NCBI GenBank assembly: GCA_015689745.1
Contig: WVSO01000004.1
Location: 1-64,000, forward strand
Length of the DNA stretch: 64,000 bases
Direction of reading: 5' to 3'
DNA from: Rhodobacterales bacterium HKCCSP123
GTDB lineage: Bacteria > Pseudomonadota > Alphaproteobacteria > Rhodobacterales > Rhodobacteraceae
Notes under the pieces: model-generated
Told to the model about the DNA's origin: nothing
Seen by the model: the letters and a program-made list of their open reading frames with translations, nothing else
The model's database searches: none
Program-made: the position numbers and the translations under genes
Shown: positions 3-17,560 of the stretch, one piece after another
How positions within the stretch are numbered: the stretch's first letter is position 1
Layout of the letters: each line of letters starts with the position of its first letter

Positions 3-587
3 GATCCCGCCAGCGTTGCGCCGCCGCCCGCGACCCGCGCGATGGGGCGGCCCGGGTTCTGGCCCCTCGGGCTCGGCTTCGCGCTGACCGCGCTCGGGGC
101 TGCGATCCTGCTGACGAACCTCCTGCCGCTGATGGACGCGCTCGGCGTACCGGAAGGCCTCGCCATCCTGGCGGCCTCCACCATCGGACCCGCTCAGGTC
201 GCTGGCCGGATCATCCTGACGCTGGCGGGCGCGCGCGCCGCCGCGCGATCCGTGACGCTCGGCGCCTTCCTGTTCATCTCGGCGGGCGCGCTGGCCATGG
301 GCGCGGCCACCGCCCTGCCCGCCCTTACCCTCGTCTTCGCCGTCTCCCTCGGGATCGGCAACGGGGTCATCTCGATCTTGCGGCCCGTGGTCATCCGGGA
401 GGTCATGGGAGAGGCCGGCTTCGGTGAAAGCGCTGGCGCGGTCGCGCGGCTGTCGCTCTTCGCCTTCGCCATTGCGCCCGGTCTCGGCGCCGTGCTGGCC
501 GATCTTGCAGGGTACGGCGCGGTCATCGCCCTCTGCGTCGCCGCCCCGCTCGTCGGCGCCACACTCCTGCGTCGCCTGCCCGAATGA
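3..587 (+). CDS. MFS transporter, C-terminal part (cut by window edge)
   Basis: The reading frame is open from the first complete codon at base 3, so the gene begins outside the window; the first internal ATG is at 42. About 194 residues are visible and form hydrophobic stretches typical of the last six helices of a major facilitator transporter. The best family marker is the helix-rich run beginning VFAVSLGIGNGV with the charged RPVVIREV turn after it, which resembles MFS proteins of the YfmO/cyanate-permease-like groups. The substrate cannot be told. The gene ends just before a GC-rich hairpin and faces the heat-shock gene on the other strand. Confidence 0.75.
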   Translation, partial: DPASVAPPPATRAMGRPGFWPLGLGFALTALGAAILLTNLLPLMDALGVPEGLAILAASTIGPAQVAGRIILTLAGARAAARSVTLGAFLFISAGALAMGAATALPALTLVFAVSLGIGNGVISILRPVVIREVMGEAGFGESAGAVARLSLFAFAIAPGLGAVLADLAGYGAVIALCVAAPLVGATLLRRLPE

Positions 588-591
588 AGAA

Positions 592-613
592 GGGCGGCCC
601 CGAAGGACCGCCC
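592..613. terminator. Hairpin between convergent genes
   Basis: GGGCGG at 592-597 pairs with CCGCCC at 608-613 around a 10-base loop, starting 5 bases after the MFS stop and 26 bases before the heat-shock gene stop. It is positioned to end transcription from either side. No clear T-tract follows, so the strength is uncertain. Confidence 0.55.
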
Positions 614-638
614 CGATCGTCGTCTCATCGAAAGACGG

Positions 639-1094
639 TCAGGCGGTTTCCGCCTCGATCACCTTCGGCGCGGCGCGCGTGATCTCGATCTGCCGCGGCT
701 TCAGCGCCTCGGGCACCTCGCGCACGAGGTCGATGTGCAGCATGCCGTTCTCGTGCACGGCACCCGTCACGCGCACGTGGTCGGCCAGCTGGAACCGCTT
801 CTCGAAAGCGCGCGTGGCGATCCCTCGGTGCAGGTAGGTGCGCTGCGCCTCGTCCTTGGCCTTGCGGGCGGTGACGACAAGCTCGGTTTCGCGCTGCTCG
901 ACGCCCAGCTCGGACTCGGTGAAGCCGGCGACCGCGATCGAGATGCGATAGGCATCCTCGTCCGTCTTTTCGATATTGTAGGGCGGGTAGGTGGAACTCC
1001 CCACGTCCTGGGTCATCACGCGATCCAGAAGGTCGGCCATCCGGTCGAAGCCGACGGTGGCGCGATAGAGCGGGGAAAGGTCATAGCTACGCAT
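639..1094 (-). CDS. ibpA: Small heat-shock protein, Hsp20/IbpA family
   Basis: A 151-residue alpha-crystallin-domain holdase that binds unfolding proteins in the cytoplasm and hands them to DnaK/ClpB. The N-terminus (MRSYDLSPLYRATVGFDRM) is the classic IbpA/HspA opening of alphaproteobacteria, and the core contains the TYLHRGIATRAFEKRFQL segment and a following hydrophobic beta-strand region. The C-terminal anchoring motif is not a clear IXI. The start is supported by GGAGGAT 6-7 bases upstream. No ROSE-type thermometer could be recognised in the short leader. The gene symbol is by family; alphaproteobacteria often carry several paralogues. Confidence 0.9.
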   Translation of the reverse strand: MRSYDLSPLYRATVGFDRMADLLDRVMTQDVGSSTYPPYNIEKTDEDAYRISIAVAGFTESELGVEQRETELVVTARKAKDEAQRTYLHRGIATRAFEKRFQLADHVRVTGAVHENGMLHIDLVREVPEALKPRQIEITRAAPKVIEAETA

Positions 1095-3538: not shown

Positions 3539-3901
3539 TTACCTTCCGATCAGCGACAGGAAGACGAGGCCGAAGAGCCCCGCCGTCACGAGATAGACGA
3601 GGGTGAAGACGAAGCGCGCGGCCCAGACCCGTTCGAACCGGCCGAGATAGAGGTGATAGAGCATCCCCGCCACCGCCGCCGCCATCAGGCCCGTGGCGAT
3701 GGCCGCCAGCCGCTCCGGGGGCAGCCCGGCCACCGGGCCGTCCAGGATGATCGCCACGAAGATCGCCGCCGCTGCGAGGACGAGTGCCGCCTGCGCCAGC
3801 ACCGCTCCCCTCTTGCGGTCCGACATCAGCGCGAGGCCGCAGAACAGCGCGGCCGAGGGAAGCGCCACGGGCACGGCGTCCAGAACCATGGCCCGCCTCA
3901 C
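3539..3901 (-). CDS. Small membrane protein inside the glc operon
   Basis: A 120-residue protein with about four hydrophobic segments (roughly 9-26, 32-53, 64-82, 93-117) and no recognised domain. The start is GTG at 3901, overlapping the glcE stop as GTGA, so translation is probably coupled; an internal ATG lies at 3889. It sits between glcE and glcF, 4 bases before glcF. The soluble GlcDEF subunits need a route to the quinone pool, so a membrane anchor role is a reasonable guess from position only. No residues that would bind heme or quinone can be assigned. Confidence 0.75.
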   Translation of the reverse strand: MRRAMVLDAVPVALPSAALFCGLALMSDRKRGAVLAQAALVLAAAAIFVAIILDGPVAGLPPERLAAIATGLMAAAVAGMLYHLYLGRFERVWAARFVFTLVYLVTAGLFGLVFLSLIGR

Positions 3902-5016
3902 GCGCCCATCAACCCGGGGTTCAGGATACCCCGCGGATCGAACTTCTGCCGAAGCCCGCCGGACAGCCTTGCAAGCGGCGCGGGCTCCGGCTGGAACGGC
4001 GCGATCCGCGTCCGTGTCTCTTCGGACGCGCGGATCAGCGTCGCATGGCCGGCAAAGGCGCCAAGCCGCGCGCGCAGGTCCGTACCCTCGGGCACCAGGA
4101 CCCAGATCAGCCCGCCGCCCCAGTCGTACATCACCTCTCCGCCCGTCCGTGCCGCGATCTCCGGCCCGTCCGACGGCGCGACCGAGATGCGCCAGACATC
4201 GCCGTCGCGGCCCGCGAAGGCGTTGACGTCGCGCACTGCGCGCCAGGCCTCGGAGACCCGCTTGCCATCCTCCTCGACCGAGACCGTTCCGAAGGAGCCC
4301 ATCAGCTCCGACAGGCGCCCGGCCCTGTAGGCCACGCTCGCCGCGAAGCCTTCGATCCGCAGCATCGTTCGCCCCTCGGCCGGCAGATGCGCCGCCCCCG
4401 TCACCTCGAAGGGCGAGCCGAGCGCGGTCGCCATCGCCTCGACCGCCTGCAGCGCGCTCAGGCCCTCGATGCTCAGCGCGGCCGCCGCCTCGGGCGCAGG
4501 CAGCACCTTGAAGGCCACCTCGCTCAGAACCCCCAGCGTTCCCCAGGACCCCGCCATCAGCTTCACGAGATCGTAGCCGGTGACATTCTTCATCACCCGC
4601 CCGCCGTTCTTCAGGATCGTCCCCGACCCATCGACGAAACGGACCCCGATCAGGCTGTCCCGCGCCGCGCCCGCCTGGATCCGCCGCGGCCCCGAGACAT
4701 TGGCCGCCACCACCCCGCCGATGGTCGGCTCCCCCTCGGTGCCCAGGAGCGCGCGATGATCCATCGGCTCGAAGGGCAGGCGCTGCCCCTCGGCGGCAAG
4801 CGCGGCCTCGACCTCGGCCAGCGGCGTGCCGGCCTTCGCCACGATGGTGAGCGCGCCGGGCTCGTAAAGCCCGATGCCCGAAAGGCTGGCCACCGACAGC
4901 ACCTCGCCCTCAACGGGCCGGCCGACGGGGCGCGTGCCGCCCCCCATGACGCGCAGCGGCGCCTTGGCACCGGCCACGATATCGCTCAGTTCCGCTTCGG
5001 TCGCAGGGCTCAGCAT
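3898..5016 (-). CDS. glcE: Glycolate oxidase FAD-binding subunit GlcE
   Basis: A 372-residue FAD_binding_4 (PCMH-type) protein, shorter than GlcD as is usual for GlcE. The N-terminal flavin-binding loop is visible (LRVMGGGTRPVGRP), followed by the second FAD segment (GEPTIGGVVAANVSGPRR) and RIQAGAARDSLIGVRFVDG. It forms the second flavin subunit of the glycolate dehydrogenase complex. GAAGGAGC upstream supports the ATG at 5016. The gene is separated from glcD by 76 bases containing a strong GC hairpin, which could lower expression of glcE and glcF relative to glcD. Confidence 0.95.
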   Translation of the reverse strand: MLSPATEAELSDIVAGAKAPLRVMGGGTRPVGRPVEGEVLSVASLSGIGLYEPGALTIVAKAGTPLAEVEAALAAEGQRLPFEPMDHRALLGTEGEPTIGGVVAANVSGPRRIQAGAARDSLIGVRFVDGSGTILKNGGRVMKNVTGYDLVKLMAGSWGTLGVLSEVAFKVLPAPEAAAALSIEGLSALQAVEAMATALGSPFEVTGAAHLPAEGRTMLRIEGFAASVAYRAGRLSELMGSFGTVSVEEDGKRVSEAWRAVRDVNAFAGRDGDVWRISVAPSDGPEIAARTGGEVMYDWGGGLIWVLVPEGTDLRARLGAFAGHATLIRASEETRTRIAPFQPEPAPLARLSGGLRQKFDPRGILNPGLMGA

Positions 5017-5040
5017 CCGGCCCGCTCCTTCTCTGTTTCA

Positions 5041-5078
5041 AAAATATCCCGGGGGGTCCGGGGGGCAGAGCCCCCCGG
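5041..5078 (-). repeat. GC-stem hairpin plus CCCGGGATATTTTTG motif
   Basis: CCGGGGGG (5058-5065) pairs with CCCCCCGG (5071-5078) around CAGAG. Read on the minus strand the stem is followed by a second C-run, CCCGGGATATTTTT and then GAAACAGAG. From general knowledge, this arrangement is common between genes in Rhodobacteraceae genomes. Position between glcD and glcE suggests an attenuator or a 3'-end-stabilising element; the T-run makes partial termination possible. Confidence 0.6.
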
Positions 5079-7628: not shown

Positions 7629-8015
7629 ATGAGACCGTTCCGTTCCGCTCTGCCCGCTCCCCTCGCCCTCGTCGCCGCGATGACTGTCGCCGCACCCGGC
7701 CATGCCGACCCTGCCCTCGTGGCGGGGGCAGAGGCGACCCTGACCGGAGCCGGCTGGCGTTTCGACGTCACGATCTTGCACCCCGAGACCGGCTGGGACG
7801 ACTACGCCGACGGCTGGCGCGTCGAGACACCCGACGGGCGGGTGCTGGGCGAACGTCCACTGGCCCACCCTCATGTGAACGAGCAGCCCTTCACACGGTC
7901 GCTTTCGGGCGTCGCGATCCCCGAGGGCCTCGATCGCGTGGCGATCCGGGCCCGGACCAGCGTGGAGGGATGGGGGGACGAGACCTTGCTCCTGACCCTG
8001 CGCGCGCCCCCGTGA
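7629..8015 (+). CDS. Small secreted protein, function unknown
   Basis: A 128-residue protein with a signal peptide (MRPFRSALPAPLALVAAMTVAAPGHAD). The mature part, with several aromatic-rich turns (AGWRFDVTILHPETGWDDYADGW and HPHVNEQPFTRSLSGV), looks like a compact beta-sandwich periplasmic domain. No cysteines. I do not recognise the family by name. An in-frame GTG at 7623 is an alternative start. It is 64 bases after the preceding secreted-protein gene, so the two may be co-transcribed. Confidence 0.7.
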   Translation: MRPFRSALPAPLALVAAMTVAAPGHADPALVAGAEATLTGAGWRFDVTILHPETGWDDYADGWRVETPDGRVLGERPLAHPHVNEQPFTRSLSGVAIPEGLDRVAIRARTSVEGWGDETLLLTLRAPP

Positions 8016-8113
8016 CGGGACAGCATGTGCCGCCTCCGGGCCACGGGATCGACATGAAACTGCCGCCGTCCCCCGGCATGCTGCCCGGTCTCATCAGCCA
8101 CGGGAGTGGTTCA

Positions 8114-8347
8114 ATGTATGACCGCATGACGCTGCGCCGGTCGCGCAAATCGAAGACAAAACATGTTCCTCATAGGTGTCACCGCTGCAATGGAACCGGC
8201 ATCGCCCCCTGCCGCACCTGCGGCGGCACGGGCAAGCTGAAGCGCGGCGCCGACAGGAACGGTCATCCGGCCTTTGGCCCTTGCGAAGGTTGCTACGGTC
8301 GCAAGACCACGCGATGCCCGACCTGCAACGGCCAGGTCTTCGTCTGA
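8114..8347 (+). CDS. DnaJ-type zinc-finger miniprotein without J domain
   Basis: A 77-residue protein made almost entirely of four cysteine pairs: CHRCNGTG, CRTCGGTG, CEGCYGRK and CPTCNGQV. The first two keep the full CXXCXGXG repeat of the DnaJ zinc-binding domain, so two zinc ions are expected. There is no J domain and no C-terminal substrate-binding region, so it is not a full chaperone. The basic N-terminus (MTLRRSRKSKTKH) could bind nucleic acid. GGGAG seven bases upstream supports 8114; an in-frame ATG at 8054 would add 20 residues. It ends 8 bases from the convergent gene. Confidence 0.7.
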   Translation: MYDRMTLRRSRKSKTKHVPHRCHRCNGTGIAPCRTCGGTGKLKRGADRNGHPAFGPCEGCYGRKTTRCPTCNGQVFV

Positions 8348-8355
8348 CATGTCGT

Positions 8356-10422
8356 TCAGCGCCGCCCTTCGCGCAGCCAGCCCGCGACGGTCAGCGCGGC
8401 GGCCAGAAGCAGGAACAGCCAGGCCGAGATGAGCGGCGTCACCGTGACATCGGTCGTCAGGTAGGCGTTGCGTGCGGTCAGGCCGATCCAGCCGCGCCCG
8501 TTGGCCGTCCGCCCCTCGGCGACGCGGCGGATGTCCGGCATCCCGTCCTCGAGCCGAAGAACGGCACCCGACAGGGGATCGGCCAGGGGGTCGAGCCGCG
8601 CACCGCTGGCGATGGTCTCCTCGAATTCGCGTGGCGCGGCCGGGCCGAGCGCGATTACCGTTTCGCGCTCGCCTTCCCGCAGGCGGTAGAGGCCCTGCTC
8701 GGCCCCGTCGATCTCGGCGGTGAAGCGGCCCGGCGCGGTCTCCGTCAGCACCACCTGGGTCTCGCTGCCATCCGGCGCCGTCACGCTCAGCACACCGACC
8801 GCCCCGGCCAGGGTCCGGCGCGTCACGCGGATCGTCTGGCCATCGGTCTCGGCGACCAGCGCCTCTTCCTCGAGGTCGGGCTCGCCCATCATCCAGTGCG
8901 CCAGCCGGCGCAGCATCTCGAGCTGCGGCCCGCCCCCCTCGTAGCCGCGATCCCAGAGCCAGGCGTGATCCGACGCGAGCAGCGCGACGCGCCCCTCACC
9001 CACGCGGTCGAGCATCAGGAGCGGCACGCCGCCATTGCCGGTCATCACCGTCTGGCCCGCCTGTTCGGTCACCTCGATCTGCCGCATCCAGCGGCCCCAG
9101 GGCTGATCGCTGTCGGCGAGCGGCTCATGCGCCTCCGCCAGCCCGGCGGTGACCGGGTGGCGCTGCCCGAGGTCGGAGATCTCGGGCAGGAAGGGCGCCT
9201 CGATCACCCGCGCGGTGGGCCGCCCCGGCAGGATCTCCGATAGCGGCGTCCGGTAGAGCGAGGCCGCCGAGGCGTAATCGGGACCTGCGGCCAGCAGAAG
9301 CGCCCCGCCATCCTCGACGTAGCGGCGAATGTTGTCGATGTAGAGCATCGGAAGGATGCCCCGGCGCTGGTAGCGGTCGAAGATGATCAGGTCGAAATCG
9401 TCGACCGACTCCATGAACAACTCGCGCGTGGGGAAGGCGATGAGGCTGAGTTCCGTCACCGGCACGCCGTCCTGCCTGTCCGGCGGGCGCAGGATGGTGA
9501 AATGCACGAGATCGACCGAGGGGTCCGATTTCAGAAGGTTCCGCCAGGTCCGCTGCCCCGGATGCGGCTCGCCCGAGACGAGCAGCACCGACAGCCGGTC
9601 TCGGATGCCGTTGATCTGCACCACGGCGGCGTTGTTGCGGTCGGTCAGTTCGCCCGGCGCTTCGGGAATGATGAACTGCACGACGTTCTGGCCCGCGTGG
9701 TCCAGCGTCAGGGGAAGTTGCAGTGTCTCGTTCGTCGGCACCTGGAAGGTGCGCGAAGGCCCGCCGTCGATGGCAATGGCGATCTCGGCGCGACCCGACA
9801 GGCCGGCGGGCACCGCGCCCTGGTCCTCGATCCGCAGGGTCATCATCAGCTCTTCGCCGATGATCCCGAAGGCCGGGGCGGTCTCGATCACCAGCCGCCG
9901 GTCCCAGTCGGTCTCGCGCCCCGTGATCAGCGCGTGAAGCGGCGCGGGCAGGTCGGGCACCAGTTGCGCGTCATGCAGCTGTCCGTCGGTGACAAGGATC
10001 GCCCCCGCGATGCGCGCCCGCGGCTCCTCGGCCAGCATCCGGTTCAGTTCCGCCATCAGAAGCGTGCCGGCGTTCTCCGGCGCATCCGCAACGGTCGACA
10101 GGCGCATCTCCATCCCCAGGGCGGCGATCTCGGCCTCGAGCGCCTCGAGCGCGTCCACCGTCTGGTCGGGCCGGTCGGCGATGCGCTGGCTGGCGGACTG
10201 GTCGGCCACGACAAGGACGATATCCGGGAGCGGCTCACGCTCTTCCGATTGCAGCGAGGGGTTCAGAAGCGCGGCCAGCAGCGCTGCCCCCGCCAGAAGG
10301 CGGAAGGGCCAGCCGGACAGGCCGCGCCAGACGGCCAGCGCCACGATCAGCAGCGTCGCAGCCCCGAGGGCCCAGATCAGCGCCATCGGCAGAAGTGGAT
10401 CGAAGAGGATCGTCTGCGCCAT
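8356..10422 (-). CDS. Membrane protein with vWA-like and glutamine-amidotransferase-like domains
   Basis: A 688-residue protein, the last gene of the moxR operon. Two hydrophobic helices at the N-terminus (about 10-30 and 38-52) precede a vWA-like region with a MIDAS-type DQSAS and ILVTDGQLHD. A glutamine-amidotransferase-like region follows (about 290-500, containing VLLVSGEPHPGQRTW, DLIIFDRY and YVEDGGALLLAAG), and a single helix closes the protein (LISAWLFLLLAAALTVAGW). This layout is known from alphaproteobacterial proteins next to MoxR, DUF58 and DUF4159 genes. No catalytic triad is evident in the amidotransferase-like part. Role probably in envelope or metalloprotein maturation, by analogy only. 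Confidence 0.8.
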   Translation of the reverse strand: MAQTILFDPLLPMALIWALGAATLLIVALAVWRGLSGWPFRLLAGAALLAALLNPSLQSEEREPLPDIVLVVADQSASQRIADRPDQTVDALEALEAEIAALGMEMRLSTVADAPENAGTLLMAELNRMLAEEPRARIAGAILVTDGQLHDAQLVPDLPAPLHALITGRETDWDRRLVIETAPAFGIIGEELMMTLRIEDQGAVPAGLSGRAEIAIAIDGGPSRTFQVPTNETLQLPLTLDHAGQNVVQFIIPEAPGELTDRNNAAVVQINGIRDRLSVLLVSGEPHPGQRTWRNLLKSDPSVDLVHFTILRPPDRQDGVPVTELSLIAFPTRELFMESVDDFDLIIFDRYQRRGILPMLYIDNIRRYVEDGGALLLAAGPDYASAASLYRTPLSEILPGRPTARVIEAPFLPEISDLGQRHPVTAGLAEAHEPLADSDQPWGRWMRQIEVTEQAGQTVMTGNGGVPLLMLDRVGEGRVALLASDHAWLWDRGYEGGGPQLEMLRRLAHWMMGEPDLEEEALVAETDGQTIRVTRRTLAGAVGVLSVTAPDGSETQVVLTETAPGRFTAEIDGAEQGLYRLREGERETVIALGPAAPREFEETIASGARLDPLADPLSGAVLRLEDGMPDIRRVAEGRTANGRGWIGLTARNAYLTTDVTVTPLISAWLFLLLAAALTVAGWLREGRR

Positions 10423-10425
10423 GCC

Positions 10426-13194
10426 CTACTGCCCCAACCTGTCCAGCAGGGCCGGAACATGGACCTGGTCGGATTTGTAGTTCCCCGACAGCACGTGCAT
10501 CACGAGGTTCACGCCGAAGCGCAGCGCGATCTCGCGTTGGCGATCGCCGGCGGACCCGCGCCCCACGGGATAGAGCGCGCGGCCCGTCTCGTCCTGCGCC
10601 CAGGCCGCCGCCCAGTCGTTGCCGCCGATCAGGACGGGCGTCACCCCGTCGTTGAGGTTGCGGAAGGGCATCCCCTCGACCTGTTCGGCATCTGGGGGCG
10701 CCGCCTCGACCCAGACATCGCGGCTGAGGTGCCGCCCGGGGAAATCCTGCAGCAGGTAGAAGGTGCGCGTCAGCACGTGATCGGGCGGGATCGGTTCCAG
10801 CGGCGGAATGTCGAGGGGGGCTGCCAGCGCGCGCAGGCGCCGCCCCTCGGGCGTGCCCGAGCCGAAGCCGCCGATATGCGCGTCCCGCGTATCGAAGACG
10901 ATCATCCCGCCCGAGCGAAGGTAATCGTTGAGACGCCGGTAAGCCGCGGCGGATGGCAAGGGCTGGTCAGGTGTCACGGGCCAGTAGAGCATCGGGAAAA
11001 AGCTCAGCTCATCCCGTTCAAGATCGACACCGAGGGGCGGCGCGGGCTCGACCGAGGTGCGCTGCCAGAGCGTGTTCGACAAGCCCTGAAGGCCGGCGCG
11101 CGCCATCTCGTCGATCTCGGCATCGCCGGTCAGGACGTAAGCCAGCGTGACTTCGGAGGTGGCGAGCAGCGCCAACTGGTCCTCGGGGCTGAGGCCGCCC
11201 TCGGTCTGAGCCTGCCCGCCCTGCGGAAGGGCCAGCACGAGCGCCAGCACCGCGGTCCCGCGGGCAAGCCCCGACAGACGCCCGGCCAGCCAAAGCGACG
11301 CCAGCGCATCGATGAGCAGCAGGACAAGCGCGGCGGTCAGGAACGCGGCCATCAGGTCGGTCGGCGCGATCACCTCCATGCCCTCCACAGGGATCGAGGC
11401 GGGCCAGCTGGCCGGGGCCAGCACGGTATCGGCGGTGATCACGTTGCGCGCGATGCGCCGGTCGTCGGTGGCGTAGAGGCCGGGCAGCAGGGCGGCGGAG
11501 AGCGGCGCCTCGGCCAGCACCGCCCCCTCGACCCCGGGACGGGTGCCCGCGTCGCGGAGCGTGCCGAAGCCGTCCAGCACCTCCTCCGGGGTCCAGACCG
11601 TGCCTTCGAGGTCGGCCGCCTCGGGCGTGGCGGGGCGGGTCGAGATCGCCAGGCGCTCCAGCATCTGCACGAAGAGGCCCGAGAGCGGCAGCGTCGACCA
11701 TTCGGCATTCGCGGTGACATGGTAGAGCACGACCGAGCCCTGTCCGTGCCCCGCGCGGGTCACGAGCGGGGTGCCATCGGTCAGCGAGGCGATGGTGCGC
11801 ATGGCCAGCTCGGGGTCCGGCTGGGCCATGACCTGCGCGCTGACCTGCACGTCTTCCGGGATGGCAAGGCCGAAGAACGGAGAGGTGTCGGGAAAGGGGC
11901 GCAGGCTCTTGGGCTCACCCCAGCTCATCGCGCCGCCCACGCTGCGTCCGCCCTCGCGCAGGCGCACGGGCATCAGCGGGCCGGCGGTATCGCGGGCCAC
12001 GTCCGAGGCCGCGAGCCGCGGCCCGGCGAACCGCACGAGAAGGCCACCGTTCTCGACCCAGTCGGTCAGCGCCTCCTCCTCGTCCGGCGACAGCGTCGCG
12101 ATATCGGCGAGGATGATCACGTCGGGGCTGGCCAGGAGCATGTCGGTCAGCGCGCCCTCGATCAGGTCTGCGGTCGGCTCAAGCGCCTGTCGCAGGTAGT
12201 GAAGCGGCGACAAGAGCGCCTGCTGCTCATCATCCGCCCCGGCCGAGATCAGCGCGACCTGCCGACGCTGCAATGCGTCATCGGTCAGCGCCACGGTGCC
12301 CGCGCCGCGGATGCCCGCGACCTCGAACCGGGTGATGCGGTTGCGCAGCTCCGGGGGCAGGTCGAACTCGACCTCGGCGGCGGTGGCGCCCGCCTCGAAG
12401 GCTGCCGTCGCGCGGGCGAGATCGCGCGGGATGCCCGCCGGGTCGAGGCCGTGGGCGACCACCTCGACACTCAACGGTGCGCTCGCCCCGAGGCGGGTGA
12501 CCAAGCCCCGCACCGCGCCATCCTCGAAGCGCGGCGGCGCGAGGGCCAGCACGTCGCGCGTGCCCTGGAAGACCGAGATCGGCCCAAGCTCCGACAGCGC
12601 GGCGGTCAGGTCATCGCGTCCCGCGTGGTCGAGCCCGTCGGCGATCCAGTAGGTTTCGAGCGGCCCCTCCAGCCCGTCGGCCCAGTCGGCCGCGGCAACC
12701 AGGTCCGGCGCGTAGGGCGCGGGCATCAGCGAAGGCAGGCGCGCGGCCCATGCGTTCGCCGATTGCGACGGCAGATCGCCCGCGGGCAGGTCGGTCAGTT
12801 GCACCAATGCGACTGGACGGCCCGCGCGCTGCGCCTCGTCGAGCAGCAGGCCTGCCCGGTCCAGCCGGTCCGACCAGTCGCGCGCCGAGGCCCAGGAGCT
12901 GTCCATCAGGACGAGAAGTGGTCCCTCGCCCGTGCGTTCGGCCTGGGGGTTCAGGACCGGACCGGCGAAGCCGACGATCGCCGTTGCCAGGGCGGCCGTG
13001 CGCAGGAGCAGGAGCCACCAGGGCGTCTTGTCGGTCTGGCTGTCGTCGTCCTTCAGTCCCAGCAGCAACGCAACGCCGGGGAACCGCCGCCGGATCGGTG
13101 CGGGCGGGACCGCACGCAGGATCCACCACAGGACCGGCAGCGCGATGAGCGCTGTCAGCACGAGCGGCGTTCCGAAGGCGAGGCTGCCGATCAT
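10426..13194 (-). CDS. BatA-like/DUF4159 membrane protein
   Basis: A 922-residue protein. The N-terminus has the double-transmembrane module of aerotolerance BatA-type proteins (LVLTALIALPVLWWILRA, then a second helix near 60-80), followed by a vWA-like segment (LLVLMDSSWAS) and an amidotransferase-like region. Two further hydrophobic segments lie near 610-660. The last about 230 residues form DUF4159 (FFPMLYWPVTPDQPLPSAAA, YLRSGGMIVFDTRD, SGNYKSDQVHVPALL). It stops 3 bases before the next gene. In related operons these proteins surround a MoxR ATPase and are thought to assist assembly of other proteins; no specific client is visible here. Confidence 0.85.
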   Translation of the reverse strand: MIGSLAFGTPLVLTALIALPVLWWILRAVPPAPIRRRFPGVALLLGLKDDDSQTDKTPWWLLLLRTAALATAIVGFAGPVLNPQAERTGEGPLLVLMDSSWASARDWSDRLDRAGLLLDEAQRAGRPVALVQLTDLPAGDLPSQSANAWAARLPSLMPAPYAPDLVAAADWADGLEGPLETYWIADGLDHAGRDDLTAALSELGPISVFQGTRDVLALAPPRFEDGAVRGLVTRLGASAPLSVEVVAHGLDPAGIPRDLARATAAFEAGATAAEVEFDLPPELRNRITRFEVAGIRGAGTVALTDDALQRRQVALISAGADDEQQALLSPLHYLRQALEPTADLIEGALTDMLLASPDVIILADIATLSPDEEEALTDWVENGGLLVRFAGPRLAASDVARDTAGPLMPVRLREGGRSVGGAMSWGEPKSLRPFPDTSPFFGLAIPEDVQVSAQVMAQPDPELAMRTIASLTDGTPLVTRAGHGQGSVVLYHVTANAEWSTLPLSGLFVQMLERLAISTRPATPEAADLEGTVWTPEEVLDGFGTLRDAGTRPGVEGAVLAEAPLSAALLPGLYATDDRRIARNVITADTVLAPASWPASIPVEGMEVIAPTDLMAAFLTAALVLLLIDALASLWLAGRLSGLARGTAVLALVLALPQGGQAQTEGGLSPEDQLALLATSEVTLAYVLTGDAEIDEMARAGLQGLSNTLWQRTSVEPAPPLGVDLERDELSFFPMLYWPVTPDQPLPSAAAYRRLNDYLRSGGMIVFDTRDAHIGGFGSGTPEGRRLRALAAPLDIPPLEPIPPDHVLTRTFYLLQDFPGRHLSRDVWVEAAPPDAEQVEGMPFRNLNDGVTPVLIGGNDWAAAWAQDETGRALYPVGRGSAGDRQREIALRFGVNLVMHVLSGNYKSDQVHVPALLDRLGQ

Positions 13195-13221
13195 CGCGCG
13201 CCCCCGTCAGCGGCGGCCGAC

Positions 13222-13308
13222 GGGTTTTGCAAAACCCTTGGCACGCCCTTGCAAGGGCGTGGTCCAGAGCCTTGCAAGGCTCTGGCAAATCTCTTGCAAG
13301 AGATTTGC
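13222..13308. repeat. Array of four perfect palindromes centred on TTGCAA
   Basis: Four adjacent uninterrupted palindromes fill most of the 124-base gap between the DUF58 and DUF4159 genes. A: GGGTTTTGCAAAACCC (13222-13237). B: 13242-13261, arms CACGCCCTTG/CAAGGGCGTG. C: 13264-13285, arms CCAGAGCCTTG/CAAGGCTCTGG. D: 13285-13308, arms GCAAATCTCTTG/CAAGAGATTTGC. The arms differ but every centre is TTGCAA, and centres are 22, 23 and 22 bases apart (two helical turns). They could act as protein sites, as stacked RNA hairpins between operon genes, or both. Confidence 0.9.
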
Positions 13309-13318
13309 GCCGCCCCGC

Positions 13319-14212
13319 TCATGCGCGCACCTTTTCAAGGGCGCGGTAGAGCCACAAGAGCGTCGGCTCCGCCGCATCGCCCGTGTGGTGCAGGTGGTAG
13401 CGCCAGCCGGTGCGGCGGCACATCTCCTGCAACAGCGCCTTCCGCTCTGCCAGGCGGCCGAGATACTCCTCGCGCAGCGATCGTGCCTTCAGCGTCTCGA
13501 AGCGGATCGCACCGGTCATCGACTCGAAGACGGTACGCCCGTCATAGGGAAACGCCTCCTCGTCGGGGTCGAGAACCTGCACCAGGGCACCCTTGACCTC
13601 ACGGTCGGCGGCTCGGCCCAGAACCGCCTCGATCGCGGCCGGATCGCCCAGGAAATCCGAGAAGAACACGGCCCGGCTGCCCATCGGCATCATCTGCGGC
13701 CGGGGCGTGCCGTAATCGCCCGCCTCGTGCCCGTCCATCAGCGCCTGCGCCAGCCGCATGAGCTGAGCCGTGCCGCCGCGGGGCGGCTCGGACATGTGCG
13801 TCAGGCCCACGCGCTCGCCGCCGCGCACGGCGAGGATGGCGAGCGCCATCGCCAGCGTTTGCGCCCGGCGCAGCTTCGAGGGGCGCGACCTGTGCCCGGT
13901 GAAGGTCATCGAGGCGGCGTCGTCGACACCCAGCATCACCGACTGCGCGGCCTGCCACTCGGTCTGTCGGATGAAATGCCCGTCCGACCGCCCCGAGCGA
14001 CGCCAGTCGATCTGGCGATAGCCGTCGCCTGCCTGTGCCGGGCGGTATTGCCAGAACTCGCCGCCCGTGCCCGACCGCTTGCGGCCGTGGGTGCCCAGAA
14101 GCACGGTCGCGGCAAGGTGCTGCGCATCGGCCATGAGGGCGGGCAGCGTCCCCGCCACCGCCTCCGAGCGCGAGCGGAGCGTCTCGGGCGTATGAAGCGC
14201 CGTGTCGCTCAA
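13319..14212 (-). CDS. DUF58 domain protein
   Basis: A 297-residue protein of the DUF58 family that regularly accompanies MoxR ATPases. The core signature is visible (GEFWQYRPAQAGDGYRQIDW, then RRSGRSDGHFIRQTE), followed by the vWA-like part with VDDAASM and AVFFSDFLGD. No ATG fits the family N-terminus; a TTG at 14212 gives (M)SDTALHTPETLRSRSEA and overlaps the moxR stop as TTGA, so translation is probably coupled. A longer in-frame opening upstream lies inside moxR and is spurious. Confidence 0.85.
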   Translation of the reverse strand: MSDTALHTPETLRSRSEAVAGTLPALMADAQHLAATVLLGTHGRKRSGTGGEFWQYRPAQAGDGYRQIDWRRSGRSDGHFIRQTEWQAAQSVMLGVDDAASMTFTGHRSRPSKLRRAQTLAMALAILAVRGGERVGLTHMSEPPRGGTAQLMRLAQALMDGHEAGDYGTPRPQMMPMGSRAVFFSDFLGDPAAIEAVLGRAADREVKGALVQVLDPDEEAFPYDGRTVFESMTGAIRFETLKARSLREEYLGRLAERKALLQEMCRRTGWRYHLHHTGDAAEPTLLWLYRALEKVRA

Positions 14213-15228
14213 GCGGCCAGCCCGATCCGGGTGACGCGCGCGGTGACCTCGTCGATCACCTCTTCCAGCACCGCGCCCTCGGCACGGGCGCCGAAGCTCA
14301 GCGCCATGCGGTGACTGAGGACCGGACGCGCCAGGTGCGCCACATCCTCGGGGGAGGGCGCGAGGCGCCCGTCGAGCAGCGCGCGGGCACGTACCGTCAG
14401 CATCAGCGCCTGCGCCGCGCGCGGGCCTGGGCCCCAGGCGACCGTCTTCCTGACGATCTCGGGCGCCTCCTCTCCCTCGGGACGGCAGGCGCGCACAAGG
14501 TCGAGGATGAGCTCGACCACCGCCTCTCCCACCGGCATGCGGCGGACGATGCCCTGCGCGCGGATCAGCTCCTCGGGGGTGAAGACGCGCGTCGCACGGG
14601 CATCGGCGGTTCCCGTCGTGGCCAGCAGGATGCCCCGCTCGGTGTCGCGGTCGGGGTAATCGACGTCGATCTTCACCAGGAAACGGTCGAGCTGTGCCTC
14701 GGGCAGGGGGTAGGTCCCCTCCTGCTCGATCGGGTTCTGCGTCGCCAGAACGTGAAACGGCGCGGGCAGTGGCTTGTGCTCGCCCGCGACCGTCACCTCG
14801 CGCTCCTGCATCGCCTGGAGGAGCGCCGACTGCGTCCGCGGCGAGGCACGGTTGATCTCGTCGGCCATCAGCAGTTGGCAGAAGGCAGGCCCTTCGATGA
14901 AGCGAAAGGCGCGGCTGCCATCCTGCGCGGTTTCCAGCACCTCGGAGCCAAGGATATCCGCGGGCATCAGGTCGGGTGTGAACTGGATGCGGTTCGCAGA
15001 CAGGCCCATGACCGTCGAAAGCGTGTCCACAAGGAGCGTCTTTCCGAGGCCCGGCAGCCCCATGAGAAGCGCGTGCCCCCCCGACAGCATCGCCGAGAGG
15101 GCAAGGTCGACGACCTCCTGCTGACCGATGATCCTGGTGGCGATCGAAGCTTTCGCCTCCCCCAGCCTTGCGCCCAGCGCTTCGATCTCGGCGACCAGCT
15201 CGGCGGCGGGGGCGTCGGGGTTGGACAT
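14209..15228 (-). CDS. moxR: MoxR-family AAA+ ATPase
   Basis: A 339-residue AAA+ chaperone-like ATPase. Walker A is GLPGLGKT (57-64), Walker B LLMADEIN (119-126), sensor 1 ATQNPIEQEG and the arginine-finger region QLDRF. MoxR proteins remodel or insert cofactors into partner proteins, usually with neighbouring vWA-domain proteins, which fits the three genes downstream. The ATG at 15228 is chosen by family alignment (MSNPDAPAAELV) and a GGAG site; an in-frame ATG at 15339 would extend into the divergent promoter. Confidence 0.92.
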   Translation of the reverse strand: MSNPDAPAAELVAEIEALGARLGEAKASIATRIIGQQEVVDLALSAMLSGGHALLMGLPGLGKTLLVDTLSTVMGLSANRIQFTPDLMPADILGSEVLETAQDGSRAFRFIEGPAFCQLLMADEINRASPRTQSALLQAMQEREVTVAGEHKPLPAPFHVLATQNPIEQEGTYPLPEAQLDRFLVKIDVDYPDRDTERGILLATTGTADARATRVFTPEELIRAQGIVRRMPVGEAVVELILDLVRACRPEGEEAPEIVRKTVAWGPGPRAAQALMLTVRARALLDGRLAPSPEDVAHLARPVLSHRMALSFGARAEGAVLEEVIDEVTARVTRIGLAA

Positions 15229-15320
15229 GGCAAAGCTCCGAGGGATGATTATGTGATCCAGTGGTAGCAGACGTATTCCGCCGACCACAAATGGCAAAGC
15301 GTGCAGGGGGACAAAAGAAC

Positions 15321-15905
15321 GTGACAGATGCGGCGACACCGGGCACCGACGGGTTGATGAAGGCCGCGCAGGAGGCGGCGAAAGGCGGCAGGCTGCCGCC
15401 CGTTCACCTCTGGAACCCGCCGTTCTGCGGCGACCTCGACATGGAAATCCGGCGTGATGGAACGTGGTTCCACGAAGGCACGCCGATCGGGCGCGCGCCC
15501 CTGGTGCGGCTCTTCTCGACCATCCTGAAGAAGGAGGGGGAGAAGTTCTTCCTTGTCACGCCCGTCGAGAAGGTCGGTATCCGGGTCGAGGATGCCCCTT
15601 TCGTCGCGCAGGATTTCGAGGCCGAGGGCAAGGGCCCCGCCCAGATCGTCACCTTCACGACCAATGTCGGCGACAAGACCGTCGCCGGCCCCGAGAACCC
15701 GATCCGGGTCGAGCGCGACGAGACCGGAGAGCCGTCGCCCTATGTCCATGTCCGCGCCGGGCTCGAGGCGCTCATCGACCGGAAAAGCTTCTACCGGCTG
15801 GTCGACCTCGGCGAGGCGCACGAGGTAGCCGGAGTAGACTGGTTCGGCGTCTGGTCGGGCGGCGTCTTCTTCAAGATCATCCCGGTGCGGGAGCTTTCGC
15901 TCTAA
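15321..15905 (+). CDS. DUF1285 domain protein
   Basis: A 194-residue cytoplasmic protein of the DUF1285 family, conserved in alphaproteobacteria and often near moxR. Family features seen: PPVHLWNPPFCGDLDMEI, the G.W.HEG.PI motif, LVRLFSTILKKEGEKFFLVTPVEKVGI, and the end WFGVWSGGVFFKI. Function unknown; the fold is reported as two similar beta-rich halves. GTG at 15321 is chosen because AGGGGG lies 10 bases upstream; in-frame ATGs at 15261 and 15291 are alternatives. It is divergent from moxR, and its stop overlaps the stop of the GMC dehydrogenase gene on the other strand by a few bases. Confidence 0.8.
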   Translation: MTDAATPGTDGLMKAAQEAAKGGRLPPVHLWNPPFCGDLDMEIRRDGTWFHEGTPIGRAPLVRLFSTILKKEGEKFFLVTPVEKVGIRVEDAPFVAQDFEAEGKGPAQIVTFTTNVGDKTVAGPENPIRVERDETGEPSPYVHVRAGLEALIDRKSFYRLVDLGEAHEVAGVDWFGVWSGGVFFKIIPVRELSL

Positions 15906-17560
15906 CCGCCCGCGGCGATCCGTTCTCCGGCACGCAGCGCGAGGGCATGGATGGTCAGCGACGGCCCTTCGCCGCCACCCGATGACGGGAAAAGGCTCGC
16001 GTCCGCGATCCACAGGTTCCCGTGATCATGGCTGCGGCCATGGGCATCCGTGACCGAGGTGGCGCTGTCATCGCCCATCCGGGCCGTTCCGAAGACATGG
16101 GTCGCCGCGAAGCGGTCCCAGGATGACACCTGTTCCAGCAGCTCTCCGCCGCCGGCCTCCTGCAGAAGGGCGCGCCCCCGCGCCGCCATGTGGTGCAACA
16201 GGGTCAGGCTGTTCTCGGTCAGGACGGACGAGACCACGGGCAAGGGCACGCCGAAGGCATCCCGTCGCTCGGGGTGGAGCGTCACGCGGCTGCGGTCGTC
16301 GGGCAGAACGGCGGCAATGGCACCCACGGACAGGGCCGAGCCGAAGACCGTGCGCAGGCGCGCCTGGAACCCGGCCCCGTGACCGGGCACCAGCCGCGTC
16401 GCGTAGGAGGCGGGGCCGCTCAGCCCGCTTTCCAGCACGGCCGAGGTGTAGCGGCATCCACCGATGGCGCCCGGCACCCCGTCGGGCGCATTCTCGGCCC
16501 AGCTGACCGCGTCGGCGGGCAACCCCTTGTGACTGTCCGTCAGCCCCGGCACCAGCGCGGTGCCAAGCCAGCCAAGCGTCTCCATGAAGTTGCGCCCGAC
16601 CTGCCCCGAGCCGTTGGCCACGCCCTCTGGCAGCTCCGCCCCCGCGCTGGCCAGCAGAAGGCGCGGCGTCTGCACGGCACCGGCGGCCAGCACCAGGATG
16701 GGCGTTTCCTGCCGCGTGGCCACCCCGCCCCGCACGACATGCACAGCCGAGATACGCCCGCCCGGACCGGTCTCGATCCGCGTCACCTCGGCCCCGGTCA
16801 ACACCGTCAGCCGCCCCGTCACCTCGGCCAGCCTGAGGAAGGTGACATCGGCCGACCCCTTGTCGCCCAGCGGGCAGCCCCGGCTGCATTGGCCGCAATA
16901 ATTGCATGGCGGTCGGCCGTTCATCGGTTCGGACAACACGGCGCGGCTGTTCGCCTCGAAGGGCAGGCCAAGCCGCGCGCCCGCCTCCACCAGTCGCCGC
17001 GCGGCGGGGTTGAGCGGGTGGGCCGCCTGCGGGAAGGGCATGGTCCGGGGCCGACCGGTCTGGGTGTCGGGACCGGCCACGCCGATCAGCCGCTCGGCCC
17101 GCTCGTAGTAGGGCGCGAGGTCGTCATGGGTGAGCGGCCAGTCGGTGCCCGCGCCGTGGTCGCGCATCAGCCGGAAACTGCCCGGGTGCAGGCGATGCGC
17201 CTCGCCGACGTAATGAAGCGTGCTGCCGCCCACCCCGCGCACATGGGCATAGCCATGGGACGCCAGGCGCTCCGGACCGGGCGCCTGTCGGGGTGTCACG
17301 GCGTTGAAGCTCTGGAGGCCGGCGTCTACGGGGTCGAGGGCACCGAGATCGCCATAGAGGATCTCGGCCCGGCTGCCCGGAGGGGCGGGAAACAGGTGCC
17401 GCTCCCAATCGGGTTGCGTCATGGGATAATCACTGGCCGGATCGAAGCGCGGCCCGGCCTCGAGCAGCAGGACTCGCAGGCCCGCGCCGGTCAGGGCCCA
17501 GGCCGCCGCCGCGCCGCCCGCGCCGGAACCCACGATGACGACGTCTGGACGGTCCGTCAC
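15902..17560 (-). CDS. GMC-family FAD dehydrogenase
   Basis: A 552-residue glucose-methanol-choline oxidoreductase. The FAD-binding Rossmann motif is GSGAGGAAAAWALTGAG near the N-terminus, and GVGGSTLHYVGEAHRLHP marks the GMC signature. The cysteine-rich NYCGQCSRGCPLGDKGSA segment and the C-terminal HVFGTARMGDD (active His) and GNLWIADASLFPSSGG fit the gluconate/fructose-type membrane dehydrogenases. The GTG start at 17560 overlaps the upstream stop as GTGA, so it is coupled to its small subunit. No cytochrome c subunit follows, so the electron acceptor is unclear. Substrate is a sugar, sugar acid or alcohol, not resolvable here. Confidence 0.88.
   Translation of the reverse strand: MTDRPDVVIVGSGAGGAAAAWALTGAGLRVLLLEAGPRFDPASDYPMTQPDWERHLFPAPPGSRAEILYGDLGALDPVDAGLQSFNAVTPRQAPGPERLASHGYAHVRGVGGSTLHYVGEAHRLHPGSFRLMRDHGAGTDWPLTHDDLAPYYERAERLIGVAGPDTQTGRPRTMPFPQAAHPLNPAARRLVEAGARLGLPFEANSRAVLSEPMNGRPPCNYCGQCSRGCPLGDKGSADVTFLRLAEVTGRLTVLTGAEVTRIETGPGGRISAVHVVRGGVATRQETPILVLAAGAVQTPRLLLASAGAELPEGVANGSGQVGRNFMETLGWLGTALVPGLTDSHKGLPADAVSWAENAPDGVPGAIGGCRYTSAVLESGLSGPASYATRLVPGHGAGFQARLRTVFGSALSVGAIAAVLPDDRSRVTLHPERRDAFGVPLPVVSSVLTENSLTLLHHMAARGRALLQEAGGGELLEQVSSWDRFAATHVFGTARMGDDSATSVTDAHGRSHDHGNLWIADASLFPSSGGGEGPSLTIHALALRAGERIAAGG

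What the first reader, a model, noticed from the sequence alone, without database searches (positions are those of the whole stretch)
13222..13308. Four tandem palindromes, each centred on TTGCAA, spaced 22-23 bp inside the moxR/DUF58/DUF4159 operon
Palindromes of 16, 20, 22 and 24 bp lie next to each other. Their arms are unrelated, but each is a perfect inverted repeat around TTGCAA, and the centres are 22, 23 and 22 bp apart, that is, two helical turns. Sequence identity is restricted to the core, so this is not simple duplication of one repeat; selection for dyad symmetry and spacing, or a repeat-generating process that copies an arm, is implied. The array sits between two genes of one operon, so transcripts would carry four stacked hairpins. 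It could be a cooperative protein-binding site, an RNA processing site, or a mobile palindromic unit of this lineage.
Basis: seen in the sequence. Interest (0 to 1): 0.75.

Follow-up and report, generated by a model that had tools for sequence, protein, structure and literature searches.

The report
Quadruple palindrome arrays behind stop codons
A few related marine bacteria carry dozens of short DNA blocks, each a row of about four perfect palindromes with a constant centre and changing arms, squeezed in right behind the stop codons of genes, where they most likely fold into hairpins that mark the ends of messenger RNAs arriving from either side.

Summary
In detail: four perfect palindromes (16, 20, 22, 24 bp) centred on TTGCAA fill 13222-13308 between the DUF58 stop and the BatA/DUF4159 start. 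They are one copy of a dispersed family. This genome (Roseicyclus group) has 21 arrays of 3-4 units; arrays abound in 4 of 13 genus genomes; 7 of 393 other family genomes have one isolated match each. In 59 arrays of three species, arm positions 1-6 are complementary in 219-222 of 222 units although positions 3-4 vary widely; orthologues show 40 mirrored double changes against 9 single ones. The core is kept in 64 of 67 middle units not selected for it. Arrays lie a median 6 bp from a stop reading towards them and favour convergent genes: 36 of 58, against 5 of 124 other gaps. Several array-free relatives have the two stops overlapping or 6-12 bp apart there. Other genera have TTCGAA-centred pairs. 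No Y1 transposase, Rfam match or T-run was found. Best reading: a two-way 3'-end hairpin element (about 50%). Scarce G-U pairs leave room for DNA-level constraint or copy-correction.

The parts
13222..13237 (.). palindrome A, 16 bp, core 13227-13232; one arm mismatch beyond it, where orthologue L036 has a 20-bp palindrome
13242..13261 (.). palindrome B, 20 bp, core 13249-13254
13264..13285 (.). palindrome C, 22 bp, core 13272-13277
13285..13308 (.). palindrome D, 24 bp, core 13294-13299, nearest to the DUF58 stop (10 bp away)
13319..14212 (-). DUF58 gene upstream of the array; its stop codon is 13319-13321 (start uncertain, 14212 or 14254)
10426..13194 (-). BatA N-terminal/DUF4159 gene downstream of the array

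Best explanation
The array is one copy of a dispersed, clade-specific intergenic element of 3-4 directly adjacent, nearly perfect palindromes (consensus CAGNNYYTTGCAARRNNCTG) that sits directly behind stop codons, mostly between convergent genes. Proposed mechanism: a transcript entering from either side folds, behind the last ribosome, into a row of 8-10 bp stem-loops that stop the polymerase or leave a stable 3' end after Rho termination and trimming. Because the DNA is palindromic it works in both directions, and a loop that has to be recognised in both transcripts must be its own reverse complement. The unit next to the stop codon would be covered by the terminating ribosome, which may be why several units are needed. 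In the window it would act as a partial terminator or segment-specific stabiliser between DUF58 and BatA/DUF4159. Shown: anatomy, dispersal, mirrored arm changes, placement, gain between genes. Inferred: RNA as the acting molecule, and termination or 3'-end protection as the effect.
For: Stops reading towards the array lie a median 6 bp away; 29 of 59 arrays have such a stop within 30 bp on both sides, 27 on one side. 36 of 58 arrays lie between convergent genes against 5 of 124 other gaps of 60-400 bp, 1 of 58 between divergent genes against 48 of 124 (Fisher tests). Mirrored arms: positions 1-6 complementary in 219-222 of 222 units; 40 double paired against 9 single changes in 546 positions. 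At locus L029 the array takes the place of variants of another hairpin element found in 7 array-free genus genomes. At the window's own intergenic site, two Nioella loci have TTCG-centred pairs and a third has three hairpins with other loops. RNA folding z -5.45 and -4.60 on the two strands. Hairpin clusters near stops without poly-U have been proposed as terminators (PMC8355165). A terminator 5-6 bp from a stop is repressed by ribosomes in E. coli, with full effect beyond 27 nt (PMC4824070).
Against: No expression data. No T-run: 1 of 94 directions. G-U pairs are not favoured: of 27 non-Watson-Crick pairs in 1498, 6 are G-U, 4 A-C, 17 other, and in co-directional arrays 1 of 11 is G-U; a stem selected in one RNA strand should tolerate G-U. 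The core is kept far more strictly than a mere loop needs. The minimum-energy fold of the window array mixes unit hairpins with pairing between units. In the window, full termination would silence DUF4159 and the gene after it. Three of 59 arrays have no such stop within 30 bp. In nine other genus genomes most orthologous gene ends studied do without an array.
Confidence: 0.5

Rival explanations
1. Selfish or formerly mobile miniature palindromic element: copies were spread by an unknown enzyme, survive where they break no gene, and stay palindromic because replication template-switching copies one arm onto the other (quasi-palindrome correction), with no role in expression.
For: Dispersed copies, gained in one clade at gene ends that are empty in relatives. 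Neighbouring unit pairs recur among different arrays more than by shuffling in G011 (11 against a mean of 5.4; 6 of 2000 shuffles reach it), though not clearly in G000 (6 against 3.8; 317 of 2000). Near absence of G-U pairs is what arm-copying predicts.
Against: No Y1/RAYT transposase in 13 genus genomes. Placement within a few bp of stops, and between stops that overlap or nearly abut in relatives, is far narrower than intergenic DNA at large. Arm-copying does not explain the conserved core or the arm consensus.
Confidence: 0.24
2. DNA-level element: the palindromes are read as DNA, by cruciform extrusion or by a protein that binds the TTGCAA dyad in a row, forming a road-block or supercoil insulator between genes.
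For: Core kept in 64 of 67 middle units; weak arm consensus with conserved positions 1-2 and 5-7; exact symmetry on both strands without G-U tolerance; close 22-23 bp packing.
Against: A protein reading two half-sites would not need positions 3-4 to mirror each other, yet they do in 222 and 220 of 222 units. A few middle units without the core are still hairpins. No candidate protein identified.
Confidence: 0.16
3. Translation-level element: a hairpin a few bp behind the stop codon slows termination and lowers the yield of the upstream protein, as proposed for REP elements close to stop codons in E. coli (recalled, not read here).
For: Median distance of 6 bp.
Against: Does not explain three further units or the symmetry towards both genes.
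Confidence: 0.05

Closest known systems
Clusters of hairpins as intrinsic terminators (Gupta and Pal 2021, PMC8355165; abstract, sections 9 and 13, first part of 15 read)
   Same: Several neighbouring hairpins within 80 bases behind the stop codon, without poly-U.
   Different: Those are heterogeneous hairpins, mostly two per cluster; here a dispersed repeat of 3-4 near-perfect palindromes with one constant core, mirrored arms and clade-limited spread.
REP/BIME elements with RAYT (Y1) transposases (recalled)
   Same: Dispersed intergenic palindromes, often behind genes.
   Different: REP arms are conserved in sequence; here only the core is. No Y1 transposase in the genus.
Inverted repeats and two-way intrinsic terminators behind stop codons in E. 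coli (PMC6060812, abstract read)
   Same: Inverted repeats enriched directly behind stop codons.
   Different: Single stems that are mostly part of intrinsic terminators; here 3-4 units and T-runs in 1 of 94 directions.
TTCGAA-centred palindrome pairs of other Rhodobacteraceae (found here)
   Same: Adjacent palindromes about 22 bp apart with constant TTNNAA core, many behind stop codons.
   Different: Core TTCGAA, mostly two units; in G104 nearly identical copies.

Membership tests
Clustered-hairpin terminator (PMC8355165) | Two or more hairpins less than 15 bases apart, within 80 bases behind a stop codon | tested here: met
   3-4 abutting palindromes; 56 of 59 arrays have a facing stop within 30 bp
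Clustered-hairpin terminator (PMC8355165) | RNA-seq coverage drops at the cluster | not testable with these tools
   no expression data held
Canonical Rho-independent terminator | Stem-loop followed by a T-run | tested here: not met
   TTTT within 12 nt beyond the array in 1 of 94 directions; no terminator-like site called at the array
REP/BIME with RAYT | Arms conserved in sequence between copies | tested here: not met
   62 different six-base arms in 222 units
REP/BIME with RAYT | Y1 (RAYT-type) transposase in the genome | tested here: not met
   PF01797: 0 of 13 genus genomes; found in 5 of 14 control genomes
Operator array of a dimeric DNA-binding protein | Half-site letters conserved; no need for variable positions to mirror | tested here: not met
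   positions 3-4 have entropy 1.60 and 1.89 bits but mirror in 222 and 220 of 222 units
Operator array of a dimeric DNA-binding protein | A protein binds it | not testable with these tools
   needs a binding assay
Any Rfam 15 RNA family | Match at the gathering score | tested here: not met
   window 12800-13700: five weak matches, all far below gathering; five loci of one convergent site: none

The most novel reading that the evidence does not exclude
A lineage-switchable class of two-way 3'-end elements in Rhodobacteraceae: rows of palindromes with a constant, self-complementary TTNNAA core (TTGCAA in one Roseicyclus clade, TTCGAA in other genera) that are installed exactly at gene ends, even between stop codons that overlap in relatives, and are kept palindromic by mirrored change of both arms, with a dedicated factor reading the core.
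Probability: 0.3. Interest if true: 0.8.

Novelty: new variant of a known kind. Interest (0 to 1): 0.62.

Why it matters
If the arrays define 3' ends, they are a terminator class without a T-run that serves two genes at once, with a constant core that points to an unknown reader. The mirrored arm changes are a natural experiment on whether palindromes are kept by selection or by template-switch correction. Their gain between almost abutting stop codons makes it testable, in closely related species, how gene ends acquire such elements.

Tried and rejected
Coding explanation: at the window locus the array lies between the called genes and 22-bp spacing is not a multiple of three. Helical phasing as separate evidence: rejected, the palindromes abut. 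Plasmids: 141 bp around the array matched none of 72,556 records. RAYT: absent. My first gene caller was misled by antisense frames and was dropped; counts use the second, my own Markov model, not annotation. A promoter/terminator scan of 8000-16000 found nothing at the array. Literature: ten searches listed no paper whose title or abstract start describes these arrays; subscription papers and preprints are largely not held, and the listed papers were not all read.

Limits of the counts. G010 and G011 arrays were fetched from a cut list (18 and 20 arrays; more exist); G003 arrays were not fetched except at two orthologous sites. Left out before the 546-position count: comparisons with L037, and sets with unequal or unclear unit correspondence (L158, L019/L160, L025/L145/L168); the 24 comparisons used share arrays and are not independent. 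The orientation baseline comes from the same stretches, with arrays excluded. Two arrays without a convergent or co-directional call were left out.

Full report
Observation. No other run of neighbouring palindromes of at least 16 bp occurs in the 64 kb, and 50 dinucleotide shuffles gave one run of two in all. The host belongs to the Roseicyclus/Roseibacterium group of Rhodobacteraceae: the nearest orthologues of the DUF4159 protein are in Roseicyclus sp. McBI.24 (93% identity), Roseibacterium persicicum (89%), an uncultured Roseicyclus (88%) and Roseicyclus marinus (87%).

A dispersed family. Three TTGCAA at 20-26 bp spacing occur 37 times per strand in this genome, 0 times for the reversed pattern. 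This resolves to 21 arrays, 17 with four cores and 4 with three. In the 13 genus genomes the counts are 37 (own), 38 (G003), 37 (G010), 52 (G011), 2 (G001) and 0 in eight. Of 393 other family genomes sampled, 7 have one match each, and the matched stretches listed lack palindromic arms by eye. The TTGCAA form is thus practically limited to one part of one genus.

Unit anatomy. 21 arrays of G000, 18 of G010 and 20 of G011 were fetched. In their 222 units, arm positions 1 to 6 counted outward from the core are complementary in 222, 221, 222, 220, 220 and 219 cases, position 7 in 202, position 8 in 147; the entropies of positions 1 to 6 are 0.69, 1.25, 1.60, 1.89, 1.09 and 0.71 bits. If the arms varied independently, position 4 would match in about 29% of units (my arithmetic). 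There are 62 different six-base arms. Consensus: CAGNNYYTTGCAARRNNCTG. To see whether the core is kept when not asked for, I searched two cores with a free middle: in the full lists of G010 (25) and G011 (42), read by eye, 64 of 67 middle units carry TTGCAA; one has ATGCAA with intact arms, two are G+C-rich hairpins (the G000 list was cut and the G003 and G001 places were not shown, so they are not counted). A fourth unit of L023 has TTTCAA as its centre.

Evolution. Orthologous arrays were paired by flanking sequence and compared. Of 546 positions in 24 comparisons, 497 are unchanged, 40 changed on both sides with pairing kept, 9 on one side. With 8% of sites changed, independent change would give about 4 double changes (my arithmetic). 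At the window locus, R. persicicum (L038, L155) has different outer units, mirrored on both arms, and nearly the same inner units. Non-Watson-Crick pairs at positions 1-7 are rare and show no clear G-U bias: 27 in 1498, of which 6 G-U, 4 A-C, 17 other; in co-directional arrays 1 of 11 is G-U. This speaks against selection on one RNA strand alone and leaves room for constraint on both strands, a DNA-level role, or template-switch correction. Neighbouring unit pairs recur between arrays more than in shuffles in G011 (6 of 2000 shuffles reach the value) but not clearly in G000 (317 of 2000), so a common ancestral array is only suggested.

Placement. With my own gene calls, the nearest stop codon of a gene reading towards the array is a median 6 bp away; 29 of 59 arrays have such a stop within 30 bp on both sides, 27 on one side, 3 on neither. 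In two orthologous arrays (L020, L143) the left reading frame runs about 70 bp into the array. Of 58 arrays with both neighbours called, 36 lie between convergent, 21 between co-directional and 1 between divergent genes; other gaps of 60-400 bp in the same stretches are 5, 71 and 48 of 124 (Fisher p 1e-17 and 7e-9). T-runs follow in 1 of 94 directions.

How arrays arrived. Locus 1 (L029): of 11 genus genomes with the gene, arrays are in G000, G003, G010 and G011; the other seven carry variants of another element, a G/C-rich hairpin followed by an ATATTT- or GTATTT-containing tail. Locus 2 (L024), 13 genomes: arrays in G000, G010, G011 and, cut by a contig end, G003; in G004, G012, G006, G009 and G007 the convergent stops are 6-12 bp apart, in G001 24 bp, and G005, G002 and G008 have longer unrelated gaps. 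Locus 3 (L161), 6 genomes with the gene: array in G011; in G004 and G012 the two stops overlap in a CTAG (read from the sequence); G000, G003 and G010 have another neighbour gene and no array, so they do not bear on the question. Window locus: 56 of the 79 loci that could be measured have a DUF58-DUF4159 gap of -4 to 17 bp; L037 and L038 have TTGCAA arrays, L050 and L058 (Nioella) two pairs of TTCG-centred palindromes, L057 three hairpins with other loops, L045 one perfect palindrome, a few others weaker stems (six gaps are overstated because the match begins inside the protein).

A wider theme. CTTCGAAG pairs at about 22 bp occur in 15 of 149 family genomes (reversed pattern: 3 of 149), up to 12 per genome. 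At least two of the 15 (G071, G106) are single matches without palindromic arms. Several of those viewed lie directly behind stops, others do not by my gene calls, which were trained on Roseicyclus.

Folding and databases. The window array folds 5.45 and 4.60 standard deviations better than shuffles on the two strands, but the best fold mixes unit hairpins with pairing between units; L029 folds into four hairpins closed by an outer stem, and L157 into a long nested stem. The three-hairpin Nioella site L057 is not better than shuffles (z -1.13). No Rfam family fits. No Y1 transposase in the genus. No palindromic array in the 80 viral loci seen and no plasmid match.

Mechanism. Placement behind stops, preference for convergent genes, symmetry in both directions and the replacement of another hairpin element at one gene end point to 3'-end formation. 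In E. coli a terminator 5-6 bp behind a stop codon is repressed by the ribosome and reaches full function beyond 27 nt (PMC4824070; abstract and passages). With the first unit at 6 bp, the second begins near 28 bp: a row of units is what such a position would need. This is inference. Hairpin clusters near stops without poly-U were proposed as a common terminator form (PMC8355165), so the mechanism would be ordinary in kind; the constant core, the exact symmetry, the 3-4 unit design and the clade-limited spread are what is unusual.

Verdict. The acting molecule and the way it spread are open.

Noticed in passing
window 5036-5075; also behind the stop codon in L176-L182: A second dispersed intergenic element: GGGGGC...GCCCCC hairpin next to GGATATTT...GAAA. 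Its stringent hairpin form occurs 1-6 times in 11 of 13 genus genomes and it occupies the gene end that carries an array in the array clade.
   Followed up: partly
L050, L058, L084, L104, L118-L131, L148-L151, L171: TTCGAA-centred palindrome pairs about 22 bp apart in other Rhodobacteraceae, in G104 twelve nearly identical copies.
   Followed up: partly
L057 about 3870-3945: Nioella relative with three adjacent hairpins with different loops at the same DUF58-DUF4159 site.
   Followed up: partly
L017 2931-3009: Array with two overlapping TTGCAA cores 11 bp apart, followed by two regular units.
   Followed up: no
L020 2941-3028 and L143 2502-2586: By my gene calls the left gene's frame runs about 70 bp into the array in both species, so the palindromes may encode a protein tail.
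   Followed up: no
window 587-639: Convergent gap of 51 bp with a single G+C-rich hairpin and no TTGCAA.
   Followed up: no
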